Source: Bdellovibrio sp. KM01 (GTDB taxonomy: Bacteria > Bdellovibrionota > Bdellovibrionia > Bdellovibrionales > Bdellovibrionaceae). Taken from it: 64,000 nucleotides of DNA. The position numbers were made by a program, and so were the translations under genes. The stretch lies in NCBI RefSeq assembly GCF_013752535.1, contig NZ_CP058348.1, positions 1,922,001-1,986,000 of the forward strand, read 5' to 3'. Positions 10,424-18,348 of the stretch are shown here, piece by piece (the first letter of the stretch is position 1; every line of letters starts with the position of its first letter). The notes beneath the pieces were generated by a model, which had not been told where the DNA came from, made no database searches, and saw nothing but the letters and a program-made list of their open reading frames with translations.

Positions 10424-11350
10424 TTATTTAAAAAGTAAGATATCCTGGCGCAAAGACTCTTGAAGTAAAGGTCGTAAAGTTTCCAAGGATTTGATTCCGG
10501 TAAAAACGACCTCGAATTCAAGATCGATTTTGCCGTGCCATAATTCATTGTGGGCAACCACATCGTAGGTATTGATCTCGACTTCACCACGGCGATAGGC
10601 ACTCAGAAGCTGTTCCTTGGAATAAGGAATCAAATACGGTTCCTGCTTCTGAAACTTAAAATAGTTAACCGCAAAGTGAGTCCTGGCGCCAAAAGGGCCT
10701 GTTTGAATGGGTTTGCCATCCACCCATTGCTCGCGCTCCGTCTGGTTCATGACTCGGGAAAGATGAATTTGATCGGGGAGACTGGAAATAAAAATCTCAC
10801 CTTGGTCCACTGTTTTAATCGCACCCGTTTCATCTATATAAGAGGCCTTGAATCTGCGAATGATGGGATCATTGGAAATCCCATCACGGAACTGAAAAGA
10901 TCTATCTATGAAAGCGGCATATCCATTCGAACGAATTTGTTCAAACTCGATATCTCCATCGTGTTTGTTAATAAGCTTAACGATAAAAAGACCATAGCCA
11001 TCGACTAAATTGCCTGGCATCAATTTAACGTCGGCAACGGTGAAATCAGTCATGTGAACTTTGTTGTAAGCGCGGCCTTTTTCAATGGTGCGGGAATTTT
11101 CATGTAAAACAACCTCGGCCAATTTGGCAATTTGCTGTTTGATTTGGGTGTTTTGTGCAGAGTTTTCAGAGAGGTTTTTACTGATCATGCGTTTATAAAA
11201 CACACGCGGAACGCTCGTAACTTCTTCAGCAAAGACGTATTCGCAGCTATGGGCGCCATGGGCATGGAACGGCAATACAGCCGTAAACAGTATGAACAGC
11301 CATAGCGAAGCTTTAAGGTTTAAACCATCATAAATCCGTCGAATACTCAT
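10424..11350 (-). CDS. Hypothetical secreted protein with post-signal Cys motif
   Basis: The ATG at 11350 is preferred over a TTG at 11368; neither has a strong ribosome site. A signal peptide runs to about residue 33 (A-H-G-A). The mature N-terminus reads H-S-C-E-Y-V-F, similar to the A-P-x-C-x-x-V-F motif found in three neighbouring secreted proteins. The rest (about 270 residues) is not recognised. It is convergent with the TPR-like gene, with only 5 bases between, and divergent from the next gene at 11502. Confidence 0.75.
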   Translation of the reverse strand: MSIRRIYDGLNLKASLWLFILFTAVLPFHAHGAHSCEYVFAEEVTSVPRVFYKRMISKNLSENSAQNTQIKQQIAKLAEVVLHENSRTIEKGRAYNKVHMTDFTVADVKLMPGNLVDGYGLFIVKLINKHDGDIEFEQIRSNGYAAFIDRSFQFRDGISNDPIIRRFKASYIDETGAIKTVDQGEIFISSLPDQIHLSRVMNQTEREQWVDGKPIQTGPFGARTHFAVNYFKFQKQEPYLIPYSKEQLLSAYRRGEVEINTYDVVAHNELWHGKIDLEFEVVFTGIKSLETLRPLLQESLRQDILLFK

Positions 11351-11501
11351 AGTAATGAAGTATTGCAATCAAAGGACCAAGCCTTAAAAACGTCATTTGT
11401 CGACAGTGTTGCCATTGAATTCATTTAAAAACCTTTATACTCAGTTTGAGGTCGGCCTGATTCTGGCATTTCGTGGAGCAATGGCATTTGCAGGACGTCG
11501 A

Positions 11502-11942
11502 ATGAAATATCTATTTCTTATTGCACTGGTTTTTACGACCTTTGTAAGCTCCATATCTCAGGCGCAATCGGCTCCGAAATGCCAAGCAGTCTTCAGTGAT
11601 TCTGTAATTGGCAAAGTCACATCTGTAGAAGCTATTTCAGAAACAGTTATCAATAACGTCTTGATTGAAACCATCGAAGGCCATGGAAATATCACCAGTC
11701 GCTATTCTGTGAATCAATCTGAAGCATTGGAACTAGGCGAGAGATGGATGGGGCAAAAGTATTCCCAAATTGGCAAAGCTGGCAGCGGAGTTTTCGTAAG
11801 CGCTGATGGCAAAAGACGTTTTAGAATCGATAACAATTCGCTCTTAGGAAATCTCAGCCCACATAAACCCCATGTTCATTTGGAACTTGTGAATCCAATC
11901 ACTCAGATCGTTATTTCAAATAACCATATCATGTTAAAGTAG
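11502..11942 (+). CDS. Small secreted protein with toxin-like C-terminal domain
   Basis: The ATG at 11502 is chosen because AGGA lies six bases upstream and a signal peptide begins there (cleavage near S-Q-A); longer forms from 11481 or 11397 are possible. The mature N-terminus reads S-A-P-K-C-Q-A-V-F. The last 60 residues contain D-G-K-R-R-F-R-I-D and P-H-V-H-L-E, a pattern that I associate with small nuclease-like domains at the ends of polymorphic toxins; this match is from memory and unproven. No immunity gene is obvious beside it. Confidence 0.65.
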   Translation: MKYLFLIALVFTTFVSSISQAQSAPKCQAVFSDSVIGKVTSVEAISETVINNVLIETIEGHGNITSRYSVNQSEALELGERWMGQKYSQIGKAGSGVFVSADGKRRFRIDNNSLLGNLSPHKPHVHLELVNPITQIVISNNHIMLK

Positions 11943-12742: not shown

Positions 12743-14317
12743 TTATCTGAAAATACGTGAACACAATGGCGCAGATATTGGATTATTTGGCAGGAAATTT
12801 TCCATAAACTTATATCCATCGCGTTTAAAATAGAATTTAAACACGGATTTCTTGGCTGCGCGATCTGTCCAAATTGTCACATTGGTATTTGTCTTTTCTG
12901 CGACAGTTTCTAAAAAGGCTTCCATCGTGTCATTGTTTGTTTGTCCAATAAAAGGACCTTCTTTATAAGCAACAACCTCATCAGGAAAGATAACTAATGG
13001 TGCCAGCAATTCGATTTCACCAGGATATTCCGACATGATATTTGGGAATAAACGACGACTGTCAATTCTTACGGCCAAAGTCCCGCCGTTAGGAATGTGT
13101 TTCATCTTGCCCTTATCATCGAGAATCTTTTTTCTACCCACGAACTTTGTGGCCACCCAAGGATCATAGGTAAACGACAGGAAGCTTGAACTTCTTGGTT
13201 CATGCGCATGGTTCGTCATTTGATCTGAAATTCCGACTACGGTCGCACCCGATTTGTACTTTTCAACAGCGATATCGCCATTCTGTAAGCGATTCGCTGA
13301 AAGAGATCTTAAACGTCTGGTATAGCTGCCTTGGTTCTTGGTTAAAACCGTCGACATAAAAGCCACGCGACTTTCACCATCAGGCATGTTTATACGTTGA
13401 ATTTTATCAGTCGCATAATCAACACCGCGAAACGCCACTGTTGATTTTGTTAAATCAGGATGACGAATAGCTTCTAGCCACAAATTCCAGGCACTGGATT
13501 CTGATGGAGACATTGAAGCCCAAGGTAGGAAATCAGAAATCATTTGCGCGACGGCCGGGCGATCATTTTTCAAAATTAAATCATTCAACTTATCAGCTTG
13601 AGATTCCCATTGTTCCAAGGTCTTGGTCTCAGATCTCCAGGTATCCGTTGATTTTTTCTGTAAGCGTTCAGATTTCAAAGCCAATTGATCCAATTCTTGT
13701 GCTTGTTTTGCGGAATCCTGAATCAAGCTTGGCAAAAGCCTTTGAATTCGACCCGATGTCTTAGTGATTTGCTCCAAAAACTCCGCCGTGGGTTGAGCAA
13801 AGGACGACTTTAACAGATCATTTTCAATATGAGCCAGACGGGCACGAGCGGCCAGACTCCCCTTTTCACTATTAAACTGTAATTCAGCCCAGGTGTGTGG
13901 TGAATCGAAAATCAATTTATCAAATTCACGGTCTGCTACACGAATATCTGCGCCTAAATCAAAATGACTCAGACGCGTGAATAACAAAAGGTTTTTAAAT
14001 AGCAATTCAGGCTTTTTTTCGACTGTTTCATCGTATTGAAGACGAATGGTAATGCCATCAGAACCATAACTAGAAACGATTCGACTGTGGCTTTCATTAT
14101 CGATCAATGGAACTTTTTCGATAGCTGTGACAGCGGCTTCGCGAAGTTCCAGTTGATTTTCATATATGCCACCACCATGTTTTCGGCTCATATTATCGCC
14201 AATTAAGAATGCTAGCTTACGAATGCTTTCATCAAACGACAGTTCCTGCGGAGGACCTGCAAAAGTGAAATTATGTATCAAAAGGATCGCAAGGACTACA
14301 TAAACACGGATGAACAT
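12743..14317 (-). CDS. Secreted protein with ADP-ribosyltransferase-like (R-S-E) core
   Basis: A 524-residue protein with a signal peptide (cleavage near F-A-G, residue 21). Residues 1-280 are mostly helical and unrecognised. Residues about 290-440 show the three marks of R-S-E mono-ADP-ribosyltransferases in the right order: A-F-R-G (Arg297), F-L-S-F-T (Ser381) and G-E-I-E-L-L (Glu434 and Glu436, an E-x-E pair). Such enzymes move ADP-ribose from NAD+ to a target. The C-terminus ends in S-A-P-L-C-S-R-I-F-R, a motif shared with neighbours. Its start overlaps the end of the upstream phosphorylase-like gene by 22 bases. The fold call is an inference from motifs. Confidence 0.78.
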   Translation of the reverse strand: MFIRVYVVLAILLIHNFTFAGPPQELSFDESIRKLAFLIGDNMSRKHGGGIYENQLELREAAVTAIEKVPLIDNESHSRIVSSYGSDGITIRLQYDETVEKKPELLFKNLLLFTRLSHFDLGADIRVADREFDKLIFDSPHTWAELQFNSEKGSLAARARLAHIENDLLKSSFAQPTAEFLEQITKTSGRIQRLLPSLIQDSAKQAQELDQLALKSERLQKKSTDTWRSETKTLEQWESQADKLNDLILKNDRPAVAQMISDFLPWASMSPSESSAWNLWLEAIRHPDLTKSTVAFRGVDYATDKIQRINMPDGESRVAFMSTVLTKNQGSYTRRLRSLSANRLQNGDIAVEKYKSGATVVGISDQMTNHAHEPRSSSFLSFTYDPWVATKFVGRKKILDDKGKMKHIPNGGTLAVRIDSRRLFPNIMSEYPGEIELLAPLVIFPDEVVAYKEGPFIGQTNNDTMEAFLETVAEKTNTNVTIWTDRAAKKSVFKFYFKRDGYKFMENFLPNNPISAPLCSRIFR

Positions 14318-16635
14318 CTTGGTGCTCCCATAGATCCAGTAAGTTCTTTCAGTCGATAATTACCAGAGATATCTATCTCTAAGCCAAAGCCAGACTTGGC
14401 TAGAACATCACGATACACTTCAAATAGAACATCTGAACTCAAAGTCGAAACTGAACGGCCTATAGAAGCCGCGGGATCTTTTGCATCAACCACACGAATA
14501 TCAAAGTACTTTTTCATAAAGTCCAAACTGGTCGGATTGATGTAAGCTTTTAACTGTTCCGCGCTCATTCCATCTGGAGCAATCACGAAAACTGTAGATT
14601 TCACTTTGGGATTGAAAGTACCCTTCATTATGTCTTCGCTGAAAACTTTTAAAGACTGTCCGCGAGGCAAAGCCTTTTGTGTATTTGCCAGTAAACTTCC
14701 GAGACTCTTCATCGAGAAGTCAAAATCAGCTCGTTTGAAATTTGGTTGCTTCATGATTGCAGTTAAATCTGATTCCGCCGTGAATCCAGCACGCATAGCT
14801 GTTTGTGCCATTTGGAATACTGAGATCGCATCACGGCTTGGGCTTAGCTCTGTTAGCTTGCGGAACAAGGCCTTAAATCGTGCATTTTGTGGAATCGGTT
14901 CATAGTTAGAAACAGGGGCACGAATTCCATTTTGAACGAAAAGGTTTTCTAAAAGCTTCAATTGATTGCGCTTACGTCGTGAAGATGATTGCGCAGCATG
15001 AGCCAAAGTCTCGTTCTCAGACCCTACAACGTCTGAAATCAAAAAATAAGTTTCTAGTTTCGTTTGTTCACCCATGATCTCGCGCAAATAACCTGTTTCA
15101 ACCTCAACAATATCGAATCCAGCAGCCGTTTTTTTAAGCCAGGCCTCTGTTTCTTCAAAAGGTGTGTGAACTTGCCCCACAACTGCCACGCGGTCTTGGG
15201 GTGTTGGTGCAAGATGACCCTGAGTAAAAGCTAGTTTTTTTCCGGAATGAGTTTGCACGACTCCACCACGGATGACATCCCCGACCTTAATACCTTTATT
15301 GGCCATAGCACCGGCCGTACCAATATAGACGATGTCCTTATGACCTGTGTCTTTCAAAGCTTGAGCGATTGGAACGATTTCATCTCCCCAGACCGCAGAA
15401 AACACACGCCAACGTTTAATCTGACCGTTTGAATCTTCCAATAAATAGTCACTGAACTCGTGGCTGGCTTGTTCTGACGTAAACTGAGCATACGAACGTG
15501 AAATACTATCGCCGTATTTTTCATAGACGTTTTCAATTTTGATACCGCTATTGTTAATAGCATCTAATTGAAAAGAAGATTCCTTCATCGCTCGCTGAGC
15601 CATGCCATTAAACTTAGATACTTGTGATGGTTTATCAACACCCATCGTTTTAAGCAGCTCAGAAGACTGAGTTTTAACGATATCCAGCATCCCAGCATCT
15701 CTGATAGCCGTTTCAAAGGCGCCTTTTTGACCGATTAAAACCTTATCTGCAACAGGTAGATTTTTGAAAATGTCTTTTAAGATGGCAGTCTGTTTTTCAT
15801 GGAAACGATCCGCATCACCATAGACAGTGACCTGGCCTTTTTTTGAAGCAAATGTTTTACCATCAAACTTAAGGGCCTTGATTTGATCCACAAAGTGTAA
15901 AATACGATCAGCACCGGAGATCAAATTCACCATATAAAAGTGCTTTTGAGTCTTGGGATTAAAAGCCAAATAAATCTTATTATAGTTTCTTGCCATGGGT
16001 TTGATCTCTTTCACAATTTCAAAACCATTTCTTTCCACGGTTTCAGTGAAGTCGCGTTGATCACCAATAATGAATGAAATATTGCGCTCGTTAATGATCG
16101 CGTCCCAAACGAAAGCACGGGTTGTTTTTTCAGAAATGTATCTTTCAACGTCCATCAGGTATTTTGATTCAAGACGTTCTTCTGGAATATCATTTAGGGG
16201 AGCATCCGCAAAATCCAAAGCCAATGGCTTTACGCCTTTAAACGCTTTTGGAGAGTCAGAAACAAATTTGGTCGCAAGTTTGTTTTTAAAGAAATTATAA
16301 TCCCATTTAAAATCTGCCGCGGTGGCTTTAAGTCCTGGAGCTTTCGTATTTACGATAGATAAAATCAATCCATCCCAATGAGCCGGGGTATTTAAAACCT
16401 TTGCATCTGATGTCGCCTTATAGATGTCTTCAGGAGTGATTGAATAAAGAGCTTTCACCAAGCTTGGATCGCGCTTGTTACTTAAAAAATCAGCTAGATT
16501 TAAGATGTAGAACTGAAGGCGATCTACCGCTAACAATCTATCCACAGATTCAACGACGGCAGCATCTCGCGCTGAATCTGCAAAGGCCTGAACCCCGATA
16601 TTGAATATAAATAGCAATACGAATAAAAAGCGCAC
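14296..16635 (-). CDS. Secreted protein with nucleoside-phosphorylase/nucleosidase-like domain
   Basis: The GTG at 16635 is chosen because GAGG lies six bases upstream and a signal peptide starts there; an ATG at 16719 would put 28 polar residues before it. The 779-residue product has an unrecognised N-terminal half. Residues about 405-575 resemble the PNP/UDP phosphorylase superfamily: G-T-A-G-A near 440, V-E-V-E-T near 510 and S-D-V-V-G-S-E near 534, the usual base- and ribose-binding points. The C-terminal 200 residues are unrecognised and end in G-A-P-R-C-S-S-V-F-M. Members are normally cytoplasmic, so a signal peptide is unusual. Confidence 0.78.
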   Translation of the reverse strand: MRFLFVLLFIFNIGVQAFADSARDAAVVESVDRLLAVDRLQFYILNLADFLSNKRDPSLVKALYSITPEDIYKATSDAKVLNTPAHWDGLILSIVNTKAPGLKATAADFKWDYNFFKNKLATKFVSDSPKAFKGVKPLALDFADAPLNDIPEERLESKYLMDVERYISEKTTRAFVWDAIINERNISFIIGDQRDFTETVERNGFEIVKEIKPMARNYNKIYLAFNPKTQKHFYMVNLISGADRILHFVDQIKALKFDGKTFASKKGQVTVYGDADRFHEKQTAILKDIFKNLPVADKVLIGQKGAFETAIRDAGMLDIVKTQSSELLKTMGVDKPSQVSKFNGMAQRAMKESSFQLDAINNSGIKIENVYEKYGDSISRSYAQFTSEQASHEFSDYLLEDSNGQIKRWRVFSAVWGDEIVPIAQALKDTGHKDIVYIGTAGAMANKGIKVGDVIRGGVVQTHSGKKLAFTQGHLAPTPQDRVAVVGQVHTPFEETEAWLKKTAAGFDIVEVETGYLREIMGEQTKLETYFLISDVVGSENETLAHAAQSSSRRKRNQLKLLENLFVQNGIRAPVSNYEPIPQNARFKALFRKLTELSPSRDAISVFQMAQTAMRAGFTAESDLTAIMKQPNFKRADFDFSMKSLGSLLANTQKALPRGQSLKVFSEDIMKGTFNPKVKSTVFVIAPDGMSAEQLKAYINPTSLDFMKKYFDIRVVDAKDPAASIGRSVSTLSSDVLFEVYRDVLAKSGFGLEIDISGNYRLKELTGSMGAPRCSSVFM

Positions 16636-16758: not shown

Positions 16759-16790
16759 CGTCTCAGAATGAGACGGGGAGTCTATTCCCC
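16759..16790. promoter_or_regulatory. Adjacent palindromes upstream of the secreted-enzyme operon
   Basis: CGTCTC-AGAAT-GAGACG (16759-16775) abuts GGGGA-GTCTAT-TCCCC (16775-16790). Neither has a T-run, so they do not look like intrinsic terminators. They lie about 125 bases upstream of the GTG at 16635 and just after the stop of the gene at 16790. They could be an operator or an RNA structure at the end of the lipoprotein transcript. Confidence 0.4.
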
Positions 16791-17167
16791 TATTCTGCCG
16801 TCCACTCTTTAAAGCCAGCTTTTTGAGCGGTCGCTAGATCTTTGCGATCAATTTCATAAACGTTGCAGTTACCCGTAGGGCTACCGCAAAGTTGAATGCG
16901 CATCATGCCGTCATTTGCATTTTTGCTGGAGTAAACTTGAACCGAGCCCAAGTCTTTTTGCATGTCAGCCAAGGGAATACGCTTCCCCTGACCGCATTGC
17001 AAAGAGCCATCTGGCTTAAATACTTTCACGCGATCCGATGTATTCGAAGTTGTCACGGCAGCTCCTGGTTCGGCTTGAGTCTTTTTCATTTTCTCGCCAC
17101 GGCAGTCACCATGAGAGCAAGCTGCCAAAATAAGGACTGGAATAATTGCTGTTACCCATTTTCTCAT
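16790..17167 (-). CDS. Small hypothetical lipoprotein
   Basis: A 125-residue protein with a lipoprotein signal ending in L-A-A-C at residue 16. The mature part has four or five further Cys residues, including C-G-Q-G and C-N-V-Y segments that may form disulfides. No family is recognised. It lies 23 bases downstream of bamB on the same strand, so it may be the last gene of that transcript. Confidence 0.75.
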   Translation of the reverse strand: MRKWVTAIIPVLILAACSHGDCRGEKMKKTQAEPGAAVTTSNTSDRVKVFKPDGSLQCGQGKRIPLADMQKDLGSVQVYSSKNANDGMMRIQLCGSPTGNCNVYEIDRKDLATAQKAGFKEWTAE

Positions 17168-17190
17168 CGTCTCACTCCCCGACCTTAATA

Positions 17191-18348
17191 CTAGTTAATT
17201 GTACGAACCCATTGTGCATCAATCGCATACAGATTGGCTTCACCCGAGATAAAATACACACGGTCCATTTTTTCGTCTACTTGCGGAGCCGACAAGATAC
17301 CGCGTCCTGGCTCCATATCGCCCAATACTTGACCAGTTCCTGCATCCAAGAACTGCAGACGACCTTGAGATTCGCCAAACGTCAGAATGCCTTTAAAGAC
17401 TTTTACTTGCGTTGCGATACCGTCTTTAACCTTAAAGCTCCAAACCTTTTGGCCATTGGATTTATTTAAAGCTAAAACCTCACCCGTAGTCGTTGGATAA
17501 TACACACGGTCGCCAGCAACAGTGACCGAGCTATAGCCGCCCTGATCCACACGCCACAGGATTTCACCTTTGGCAGCCGAAACAGCATAAAGCTTGTCGT
17601 CATAGCCAGCGATATAGATCTGATCGCCATCCAAGATAGGGCTCGCATCGACATCACGGAAACGTTTGTTGCGGTTCAATTGCAATTCCCAAGTTACAGC
17701 ACCTGATTTCGCATTGAACGCGACCAAGGAACCATCAGAGAACCCGATATAAAGAATGCCGTTACGGATTGCAGGCTTGCTGCCACCACGAATCGAGAAC
17801 ACCGATGTGTCTTGACGAGAGTACAACCAAACTTGGCGGCCTGTTGCTGCATCTAATGCGTAAAGGACATTATTTCCCGCTAGGAAATACACAATACCTT
17901 CATCAAGCAAAGGCTCAGATAGGTTTTCTGATTTTGTTGGGAAGGTCCATTGCACGCGACCCGTACTGGCTTCGATGGAATAGAAATTACCATCGCTGGC
18001 ACCAACAAACAGACGATCGCGAATCAACGTCGCACTGGGCTCAACACCGTTTTTAACCGGCAAACGCCATTTCAACTGACCGTCTTCACGGCCATAAGCT
18101 GAAATACCGTCCATACCGTTACCCTGAATAACCAGGCTGCCAGCCAAAATCGGCGTCATACGATTGATTTTACGGAAGCCCAGATTATCTTTTTGAGTCG
18201 TTTGACGAACCCATGCAGTCTTAACTTCGAATGTTCTTTTGCTGTTATTGAGCGCACGCCATTGCTCCATAGTTTTATCTACGGACTGATCAATCGTCGT
18301 ACAACCCATCATAAAAAGAGCCAAAGCCCCAAAAATTAAAAACTTCAT
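17191..18348 (-). CDS. bamB: Outer-membrane assembly lipoprotein BamB
   Basis: A 385-residue lipoprotein (signal ending in M-M-G-C near residue 16). At least six PQQ-like propeller repeats with the G-x-x-x-W ending are visible, such as D-G-Q-L-K-W, T-G-R-V-Q-W, T-G-R-Q-V-W, S-G-A-V-T-W and K-G-E-I-L-W. This is the eight-bladed propeller of BamB, which helps BamA insert beta-barrel proteins into the outer membrane. Length is close to E. coli BamB (392). It follows a YfgM-like gene by 19 bases, the same order as yfgM-bamB in E. coli, which supports the call. Confidence 0.9.
   Translation of the reverse strand: MKFLIFGALALFMMGCTTIDQSVDKTMEQWRALNNSKRTFEVKTAWVRQTTQKDNLGFRKINRMTPILAGSLVIQGNGMDGISAYGREDGQLKWRLPVKNGVEPSATLIRDRLFVGASDGNFYSIEASTGRVQWTFPTKSENLSEPLLDEGIVYFLAGNNVLYALDAATGRQVWLYSRQDTSVFSIRGGSKPAIRNGILYIGFSDGSLVAFNAKSGAVTWELQLNRNKRFRDVDASPILDGDQIYIAGYDDKLYAVSAAKGEILWRVDQGGYSSVTVAGDRVYYPTTTGEVLALNKSNGQKVWSFKVKDGIATQVKVFKGILTFGESQGRLQFLDAGTGQVLGDMEPGRGILSAPQVDEKMDRVYFISGEANLYAIDAQWVRTIN

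What the first reader, a model, noticed from the sequence alone, without database searches (positions are those of the whole stretch)
12743..16635. Overlapping pair of secreted NAD/nucleoside-active enzymes
A signal-peptide protein with an R-S-E ADP-ribosyltransferase-like core is encoded in a 22-base overlap with a signal-peptide protein holding a nucleoside-phosphorylase-like domain. Both families bind nucleosides or NAD and both normally occur inside cells. Export of the two together suggests an effector pair that acts in prey, in a competitor or in the periplasm, for example one modifying a target with ADP-ribose and the other breaking down nucleosides or the released product.
Basis: partly seen in the sequence, partly recalled or inferred. 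Interest (0 to 1): 0.72.

Follow-up and report, generated by a model that had tools for sequence, protein, structure and literature searches.

The report
Cys-tagged secreted ADP-ribosyltransferase–nucleosidase pair
A predatory bacterium of the Bdellovibrio group exports two linked enzymes, one built like toxins that attach ADP-ribose to targets and one built like enzymes that split nucleosides, and both end in a short cysteine tag shared by about twenty mostly unrelated exported proteins, which looks like an undescribed sorting signal for proteins used on prey.

Summary
Two minus-strand genes (14296-16635, 12743-14317) overlap by 22 bp; both products have signal peptides. The downstream protein's AlphaFold2 model matches ADP-ribosyltransferases (ARTs) best (Z up to 6.9); the upstream one holds a full nucleoside-phosphorylase-type (NP-I) domain (Z 17.8) with catalytic Asp and ribose-binding Glu, but Tyr replaces the phosphate-site Arg, so it may be a nucleosidase. 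The genes are linked in 15 of 16 genomes holding both; in more distant Bdellovibrionota they are fused into one exported ~1,280-aa protein, so they work together. New here: each mature protein has one Cys, in a disordered C-terminal tail, C-x-x-[VI]-F-(x)-COOH. In 52% of this genome nine exported proteins end this way (0.09 expected); a similar motif follows the signal peptide of about eleven others, including both neighbours. They form about 18 families. A secreted ABC1-like kinase keeps the tag in all 21 orthologues with an intact C-terminus, behind divergent linkers. Most likely: a prey-directed effector pair carrying a shared sorting or anchoring tag. Activity, target and tag function are untested; a 400-kb sample of a second genome held no C-terminal tag.

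The parts
12743..14317 (-). Exported ART-like protein, 524 aa
14258..14317 (-). Signal peptide of the ART-like protein (about residues 1-20, by eye)
12953..13450 (-). ART-fold domain (residues 290-455)
   Evidence: AlphaFold2 model pLDDT 78.5, pTM 0.80; top VIA-align matches all ARTs
13427..13429 (-). Arg297, first residue of the R-S-E triad
   Evidence: invariant in A1 and A3
13175..13177 (-). Ser381 of the S-x-[ST] motif (S-T-S in some fused homologues)
   Evidence: invariant in A1 and A3
13010..13018 (-). Glu434-x-Glu436 (E-x-E)
   Evidence: E436 invariant; E434 invariant in A1, at least 90% in A3
12749..12763 (-). C-terminal tag C519-S-R-I-F523, only Cys of the protein, in a disordered tail (512-524)
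   Evidence: C519 and F523 invariant in A1; pLDDT under 50; statistics
14296..16635 (-). Exported NP-I-like protein, 779 aa (GTG start)
16579..16635 (-). Signal peptide of the NP-I-like protein (about residues 1-19, by eye)
14923..15792 (-). NP-I (nucleoside phosphorylase/nucleosidase) fold, residues 282-571
   Evidence: Foldseek E 1e-6, 374 PDB matches at E<=0.001; VIA Z 17.8, rmsd 2.7 over 202
15031..15033 (-). Asp535, aligned to the catalytic Asp of Bacillus PNP
   Evidence: invariant; profile alignment
15097..15105 (-). Glu511-x-Glu513, ribose-binding Glu motif
   Evidence: invariant; aligned to VEMET of PNP
14302..14316 (-). C-terminal tag C774-S-S-V-F778, single Cys of the mature protein; lies inside the gene overlap
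   Evidence: C774 invariant in A2; tail 769-779 disordered
14296..14317 (-). 22-bp overlap; the ART start ATG overlaps the Arg773-Cys774 codons
11397..11942 (+). Neighbouring exported protein with the motif just after the signal peptide (KCQAVF)
   Evidence: motif kept in orthologues L204-L206, the last as CDTALF
10424..11350 (-). Neighbouring exported protein with the motif just after the signal peptide (SCEYVF)
   Evidence: motif kept in L209-L211, CGTVLF in L212

Best explanation
The two genes form a translationally overlapping unit encoding the halves of one effector function of predatory Bdellovibrionota. Both halves are exported by Sec (shown by signal peptides only). The downstream half is an R-S-E type ADP-ribosyltransferase that would use NAD+ from the prey to modify a prey macromolecule, or simply hydrolyse NAD+ (fold and residues shown; activity inferred). 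The upstream half carries an NP-I N-glycosidase domain, probably a nucleosidase rather than a phosphorylase, that would split a nucleoside or nucleotide, possibly one made from NAD+ by its partner (fold and catalytic residues shown; substrate inferred). Each carries one Cys in a floppy C-terminal C-x-x-[VI]-F tag. I infer that this tag, used at either end by some twenty mostly unrelated exported proteins, is a sorting or attachment signal (for example thiol acylation or receptor recognition) that brings them to the surface or delivery route used against prey.
For: ART fold: the top 27 VIA-align rows are ARTs, best Z 6.9 (TreX: rmsd 2.8 over 105); R297, S381, E436 invariant in split and fused forms. 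NP-I fold Z 17.8, 374 PDB matches, 12 of 15 members hit Pfam PNP_UDP_1, best E 9.6e-9. Functional coupling: linkage in 15 of 16 genomes with both, 22-bp overlap in 13; ten complete single proteins carrying both parts; split forms separated from fused ones by one 100/100 branch in the NP-I tree. Tag: 9 of 818 signal-peptide proteins end C..[VI]F.? against 0.09 in shuffles; no other residue at the Cys position gives more than 2; about 18 families by BLAST; present in all 21 secreted ABC1-kinase orthologues whose C-terminus is held; tails disordered in both models. Cofactor logic: tagged families include an ABC1 kinase-like domain (Pfam E 2e-29) and an IucA/IucC-like protein (2e-11), whose known relatives use ATP (own knowledge).
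Against: No activity, expression or localisation data. Foldseek alone found no ART match, no member hits an ART family in Pfam, and the VIA Z values are under 8. Conservation of C774 is partly confounded by the overlapping ATG, although G040 without overlap still has it. The N-terminal motif is weaker: 9 observed, 1.2 expected, shuffle maximum 6. A 400-kb sample of G005 had no C-terminal tag and one N-terminal one (about 1.7 C-terminal expected from this genome's density). Clustering of tagged genes is modest once homologues are removed (4 against 1.5, 916 of 20,000 draws as high).
Confidence: 0.58

Rival explanations
1. Digestive rather than toxic: the pair degrades prey NAD+ and nucleosides for salvage, the ART-like part acting as an NAD glycohydrolase and the NP-I part releasing bases and ribose.
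For: The R-S-E pocket also supports NAD hydrolysis, and ART-fold NAD(P) glycohydrolase effectors exist (title and abstract of PMC13285283). Tagged proteins also include a PLD-like and a papain-like protein, which suits digestion.
Against: E-x-E is typical of Arg-modifying transferases (own knowledge). A secreted ABC1-like kinase and an IucA-like protein in the same tagged set do not look digestive.
Confidence: 0.22
2. The single cysteines join the two proteins in a disulfide-linked heterodimer that replaces the fusion seen in relatives; there is no general tag.
For: Each mature protein has one Cys, at the end, and relatives are fused.
Against: ART paralogues without an NP-I partner keep the motif (L005, L006), about 16 other exported families carry it too, and fused proteins keep a Cys near the ART end in nearly all cases.
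Confidence: 0.08
3. The proteins act in the predator's own envelope, modifying its periplasmic components, and the tag is a lipid or other anchor to its own membrane.
For: Export signals alone do not show transfer to prey; several fused homologues look like lipoproteins; the pair lies beside a BamB-like gene cluster.
Against: NAD+, ATP and nucleosides are cytosolic; the predator's periplasm should hold little of them (own knowledge).
Confidence: 0.15

Closest known systems
Rhs/T6SS ART toxins of the TreX/TreTu type and other R-S-E mono-ARTs (for example Scabin)
   Same: ART fold over residues 290-455, R-S-ExE residues
   Different: Sec-exported and Cys-tagged, with a large N-terminal helical part and an NP-I partner; no Rhs/VgrG/PAAR context seen beside it
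NP-I nucleoside phosphorylases and nucleosidases (DeoD, MTA phosphorylase, MTAN; Pfam PF01048)
   Same: Complete fold, catalytic Asp, ribose Glu pair
   Different: Exported; about 280 extra residues before and 200 after; DeoD phosphate-site Arg replaced by Tyr437
NP-I/PNP-like effector domains of prokaryotic conflict systems (eLife 2020 e52696, PMC7159879; found, text not read)
   Same: A nucleoside-phosphorylase domain treated as a possible weapon (own knowledge of that literature)
   Different: Those are intracellular defence effectors; this one is exported
MYXO-CTERM and other CTERM sorting signals (PMC11980579)
   Same: Short C-terminal signature with an invariant Cys on dozens of exported proteins
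   Different: Here the Cys is 5-6 residues from the end with no following transmembrane helix or Arg cluster, and a version also occurs at the mature N-terminus

Membership tests
R-S-E ADP-ribosyltransferases | ART fold | tested here: met
   AlphaFold2 model; top 27 VIA rows are ARTs, Z up to 6.9; moderate Z, Foldseek alone silent
R-S-E ADP-ribosyltransferases | Arg on the first strand, [ST]-x-[ST], E-x-E | tested here: met
   R297, S381, E436 invariant over 20 split and fused homologues; R297 lies in strand 292-300
R-S-E ADP-ribosyltransferases | Triad residues meet in one NAD pocket | tested here: inconclusive
R-S-E ADP-ribosyltransferases | NAD+-dependent transferase or NADase activity | not testable with these tools
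   needs purified protein
NP-I nucleoside phosphorylase superfamily (PNP_UDP_1) | NP-I fold | tested here: met
   12 of 15 members hit PF01048, though the window protein alone is below the curated cutoff (14.4 against 25.1 bits)
NP-I nucleoside phosphorylase superfamily (PNP_UDP_1) | Catalytic Asp and ribose-binding Glu | tested here: met
   D535 and E513 invariant and aligned to the PNP residues
DeoD-type phosphorylase | Phosphate-binding Arg before the G-[ST]-x-G loop | tested here: not met
   Aligned position is Tyr437, nearly invariant; hence 'phosphorylase' is not claimed
Bacterial lipoprotein | Lipobox Cys at the signal peptide cleavage site | tested here: not met
   No Cys in either N-terminus; several fused homologues do have one
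[quoted passage not shown]
   The chain ends one residue after the Phe; no CTERM model hit in NCBIfam for either protein

The most novel reading that the evidence does not exclude
C-x-x-[VI]-F with a single Cys, at the extreme C-terminus or just after the signal peptide, is an undescribed sorting signal that marks a whole effector repertoire (about 20 proteins in half of this genome) of Bdellovibrio predators for a dedicated modification and delivery route into prey.
Probability: 0.4. Interest if true: 0.92.

Novelty: new variant of a known kind. Interest (0 to 1): 0.74.

Why it matters
How Bdellovibrio gets proteins into prey, and which ones, is largely open: a 2025 paper calls its secretion 'largely unexplored' (PMC12622784). 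A readable tag would turn that into a testable list of candidate effectors, with the ART/NP-I pair as a first case with defined catalytic residues. The enzyme combination itself is unreported as far as the held literature shows.

Tried and rejected
Single-sequence Pfam, NCBIfam and PDB sequence searches gave nothing for the ART-like protein; profiles did not either, apart from TreX at E=2. Foldseek alone missed the ART fold; the VIA second look recovered it. Papers on Bdellovibrio with ADP-ribosyltransferase, C-terminal cysteine, sorting signals or prey effectors described neither the pair nor the tag, judged from titles, abstracts and the passages read; the Bdellovibrionota comparative genomics paper has none of the terms. 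Subscription papers are not held, so absence is not proof. Disulfide heterodimer considered and set aside (see rivals).

Full report
What is there. On the minus strand, a 779-aa ORF with a GTG start (14296-16635) is followed by a 524-aa ORF (12743-14317) that starts inside its last codons; the overlap is 22 bp. Both have signal peptides and neither has a lipobox. The genome (G000, 3.96 Mb, one contig) holds two further ART-like paralogues (L005, L006) and no second NP-I-like copy.

Distribution and linkage. Each protein is found in 18 of 147 related genomes, 16 of which hold both. In 15 of these 16 the genes are adjacent; the overlap is exactly 22 bp in 13, 25 bp in G033, and G040 has a 36-bp gap; in G004 the genes are on different contigs. 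In more distant Bdellovibrionota, including Bacteriovoracaceae, the profiles find both parts in one chain of 1,261-1,309 aa with a signal peptide or lipobox: ten complete fusions, plus L102, where an ART part runs off a contig end. In the NP-I tree split and fused forms are separated by one fully supported branch; in the ART tree the split forms group together (96/91) except for one very long branch, L111. Fusion in one lineage and overlapping genes in another is good evidence for joint function.

ART-like protein. Sequence searches alone were silent. R297, S322, S377, S381, E434, E436, C519 and F523 are invariant in 19 homologues; R297, S381 and E436 remain invariant when fused forms are added, some of which show a plain S-T-S. 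The AlphaFold2 model (pLDDT 78.5, pTM 0.80) gave no Foldseek match of note, but the VIA-align second look ranks ARTs in its first 27 rows (Z 5.2 to 6.9). These Z values are moderate, so the assignment rests on fold match and motif together. I did not measure pocket geometry.

NP-I-like protein. The model (pLDDT 80.9, pTM 0.82) holds a complete NP-I domain at 282-571 (Z 17.8, rmsd 2.7 over 202 residues; 374 Foldseek matches at E<=0.001). A profile alignment places D535 on the catalytic Asp of Bacillus PNP and E511-x-E513 on its V-E-M-E-T motif, and puts Y437 where DeoD enzymes have the phosphate-binding Arg (the role of that Arg is from my own knowledge). I therefore prefer nucleosidase to phosphorylase. 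The parts before 282 and after 571 were not assigned a fold.

The terminal Cys motif. Both mature proteins have one Cys, in the last six residues, in tails that the models leave disordered. In a census of 52% of the genome, nine of 818 signal-peptide proteins of at least 100 aa end in C-x-x-[VI]-F plus at most one residue; shuffling gives 0.09, and no other amino acid at the Cys position exceeds two. Two proteins scored as lacking a signal peptide also match, one of which has its N-terminus cut off. A similar motif lies just after the signal peptide in about eleven proteins (9 under the strict rule, 1.2 expected, shuffle maximum 6), including both neighbours of the pair (10424-11350 and 11397-11942). 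The 21 listed proteins form about 18 families by BLAST. Recognisable ones are an ABC1/UbiB-like kinase (E 2e-29), a PLD-like protein (8e-39), an IucA/IucC-like protein (2e-11), a papain-like peptidase (2e-16) and a HEAT-repeat protein. The kinase is the cleanest test: in its 22 secreted orthologues the linker before the end diverges freely, yet all 21 whose C-terminus is held end in a Cys motif of this kind (mostly CxxVF or CxxIF; CEAVLL in L176, CEKVYR in L194); the remaining one, L179, runs off its contig end. Cytosolic UbiB paralogues end in transmembrane-like segments without it. Counter-evidence: 400 kb of G005 held no C-terminal tag (about 1.7 expected), although G005's own ART, NP-I and kinase proteins carry it or a close form. 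Tagged genes lie near each other more than random exported genes (7 neighbouring pairs against 2.07, 36 of 20,000 draws as high), but largely through homologues (4 against 1.5 without them). In fused proteins a Cys near the ART end is kept in nearly all cases, while the NP-I-end motif is lost, which fits one tag per chain better than a disulfide between the partners. The fused forms' Cys lies farther from the end and the residues after it differ, so they are not counted as bearing the tag.

Reading. Exported enzymes whose folds use NAD+, nucleosides or ATP, in a bacterium that lives by consuming other bacteria, are most simply proteins for use on prey. That step is inference. What the tag does is also inference; MYXO-CTERM is the nearest precedent for a Cys-bearing sorting signature (PMC11980579), but its transmembrane helix and basic cluster are absent here. 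No paper found in the held library describes the pair or the tag; most subscription journals are not covered.

Noticed in passing
G000:C1:2532097-2534169 (L138:12094-14169, minus): Signal-peptide-bearing ABC1/UbiB-like kinase ending in CSQVFN, conserved across the genus and separate from the cytosolic UbiB homologues.
   Followed up: partly
L005 (G000:C1:2982736-2985119) and L006 (G000:C1:366741-370054): Two further ART-like paralogues, each next to another motif-bearing exported protein; the L005 neighbour contains an HEYGH stretch like a zinc metallopeptidase, read by eye.
   Followed up: partly
window 11397-11942 (+): Small exported protein with a conserved ...GERW...GSGVF...PHVHLEL... region that resembles toxin nuclease domains from memory; no significant Pfam or NCBIfam hit.
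   Followed up: partly
L103:5622-7385 and L106:5582-7354: A second, lipoprotein-like ART-family protein (about 590 aa) directly upstream of the fused gene (E 3e-42 and 4e-46 to the ART profile).
   Followed up: no
G000:C1:3522491-3523615 (L148:2491-3615, minus): Exported protein ending LCQEVFQ whose N-terminal half reads by eye like another ART; not tested.
   Followed up: no
G000:C1:1994470-1997469 (L172): Divergent pair: exported IucA/IucC-like protein (C-terminal motif) and papain-like peptidase (N-terminal motif).
   Followed up: partly
L104:4807-10097: Tandem ART-like genes flanking another motif-bearing gene in a Bdellovibrio MAG; all three end in CxxVF or CxxIF plus one residue.
   Followed up: no
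window 16790-18348 (minus): BamB-like gene and a small lipoprotein gene precede the pair; a similar order is seen in L093.
   Followed up: no
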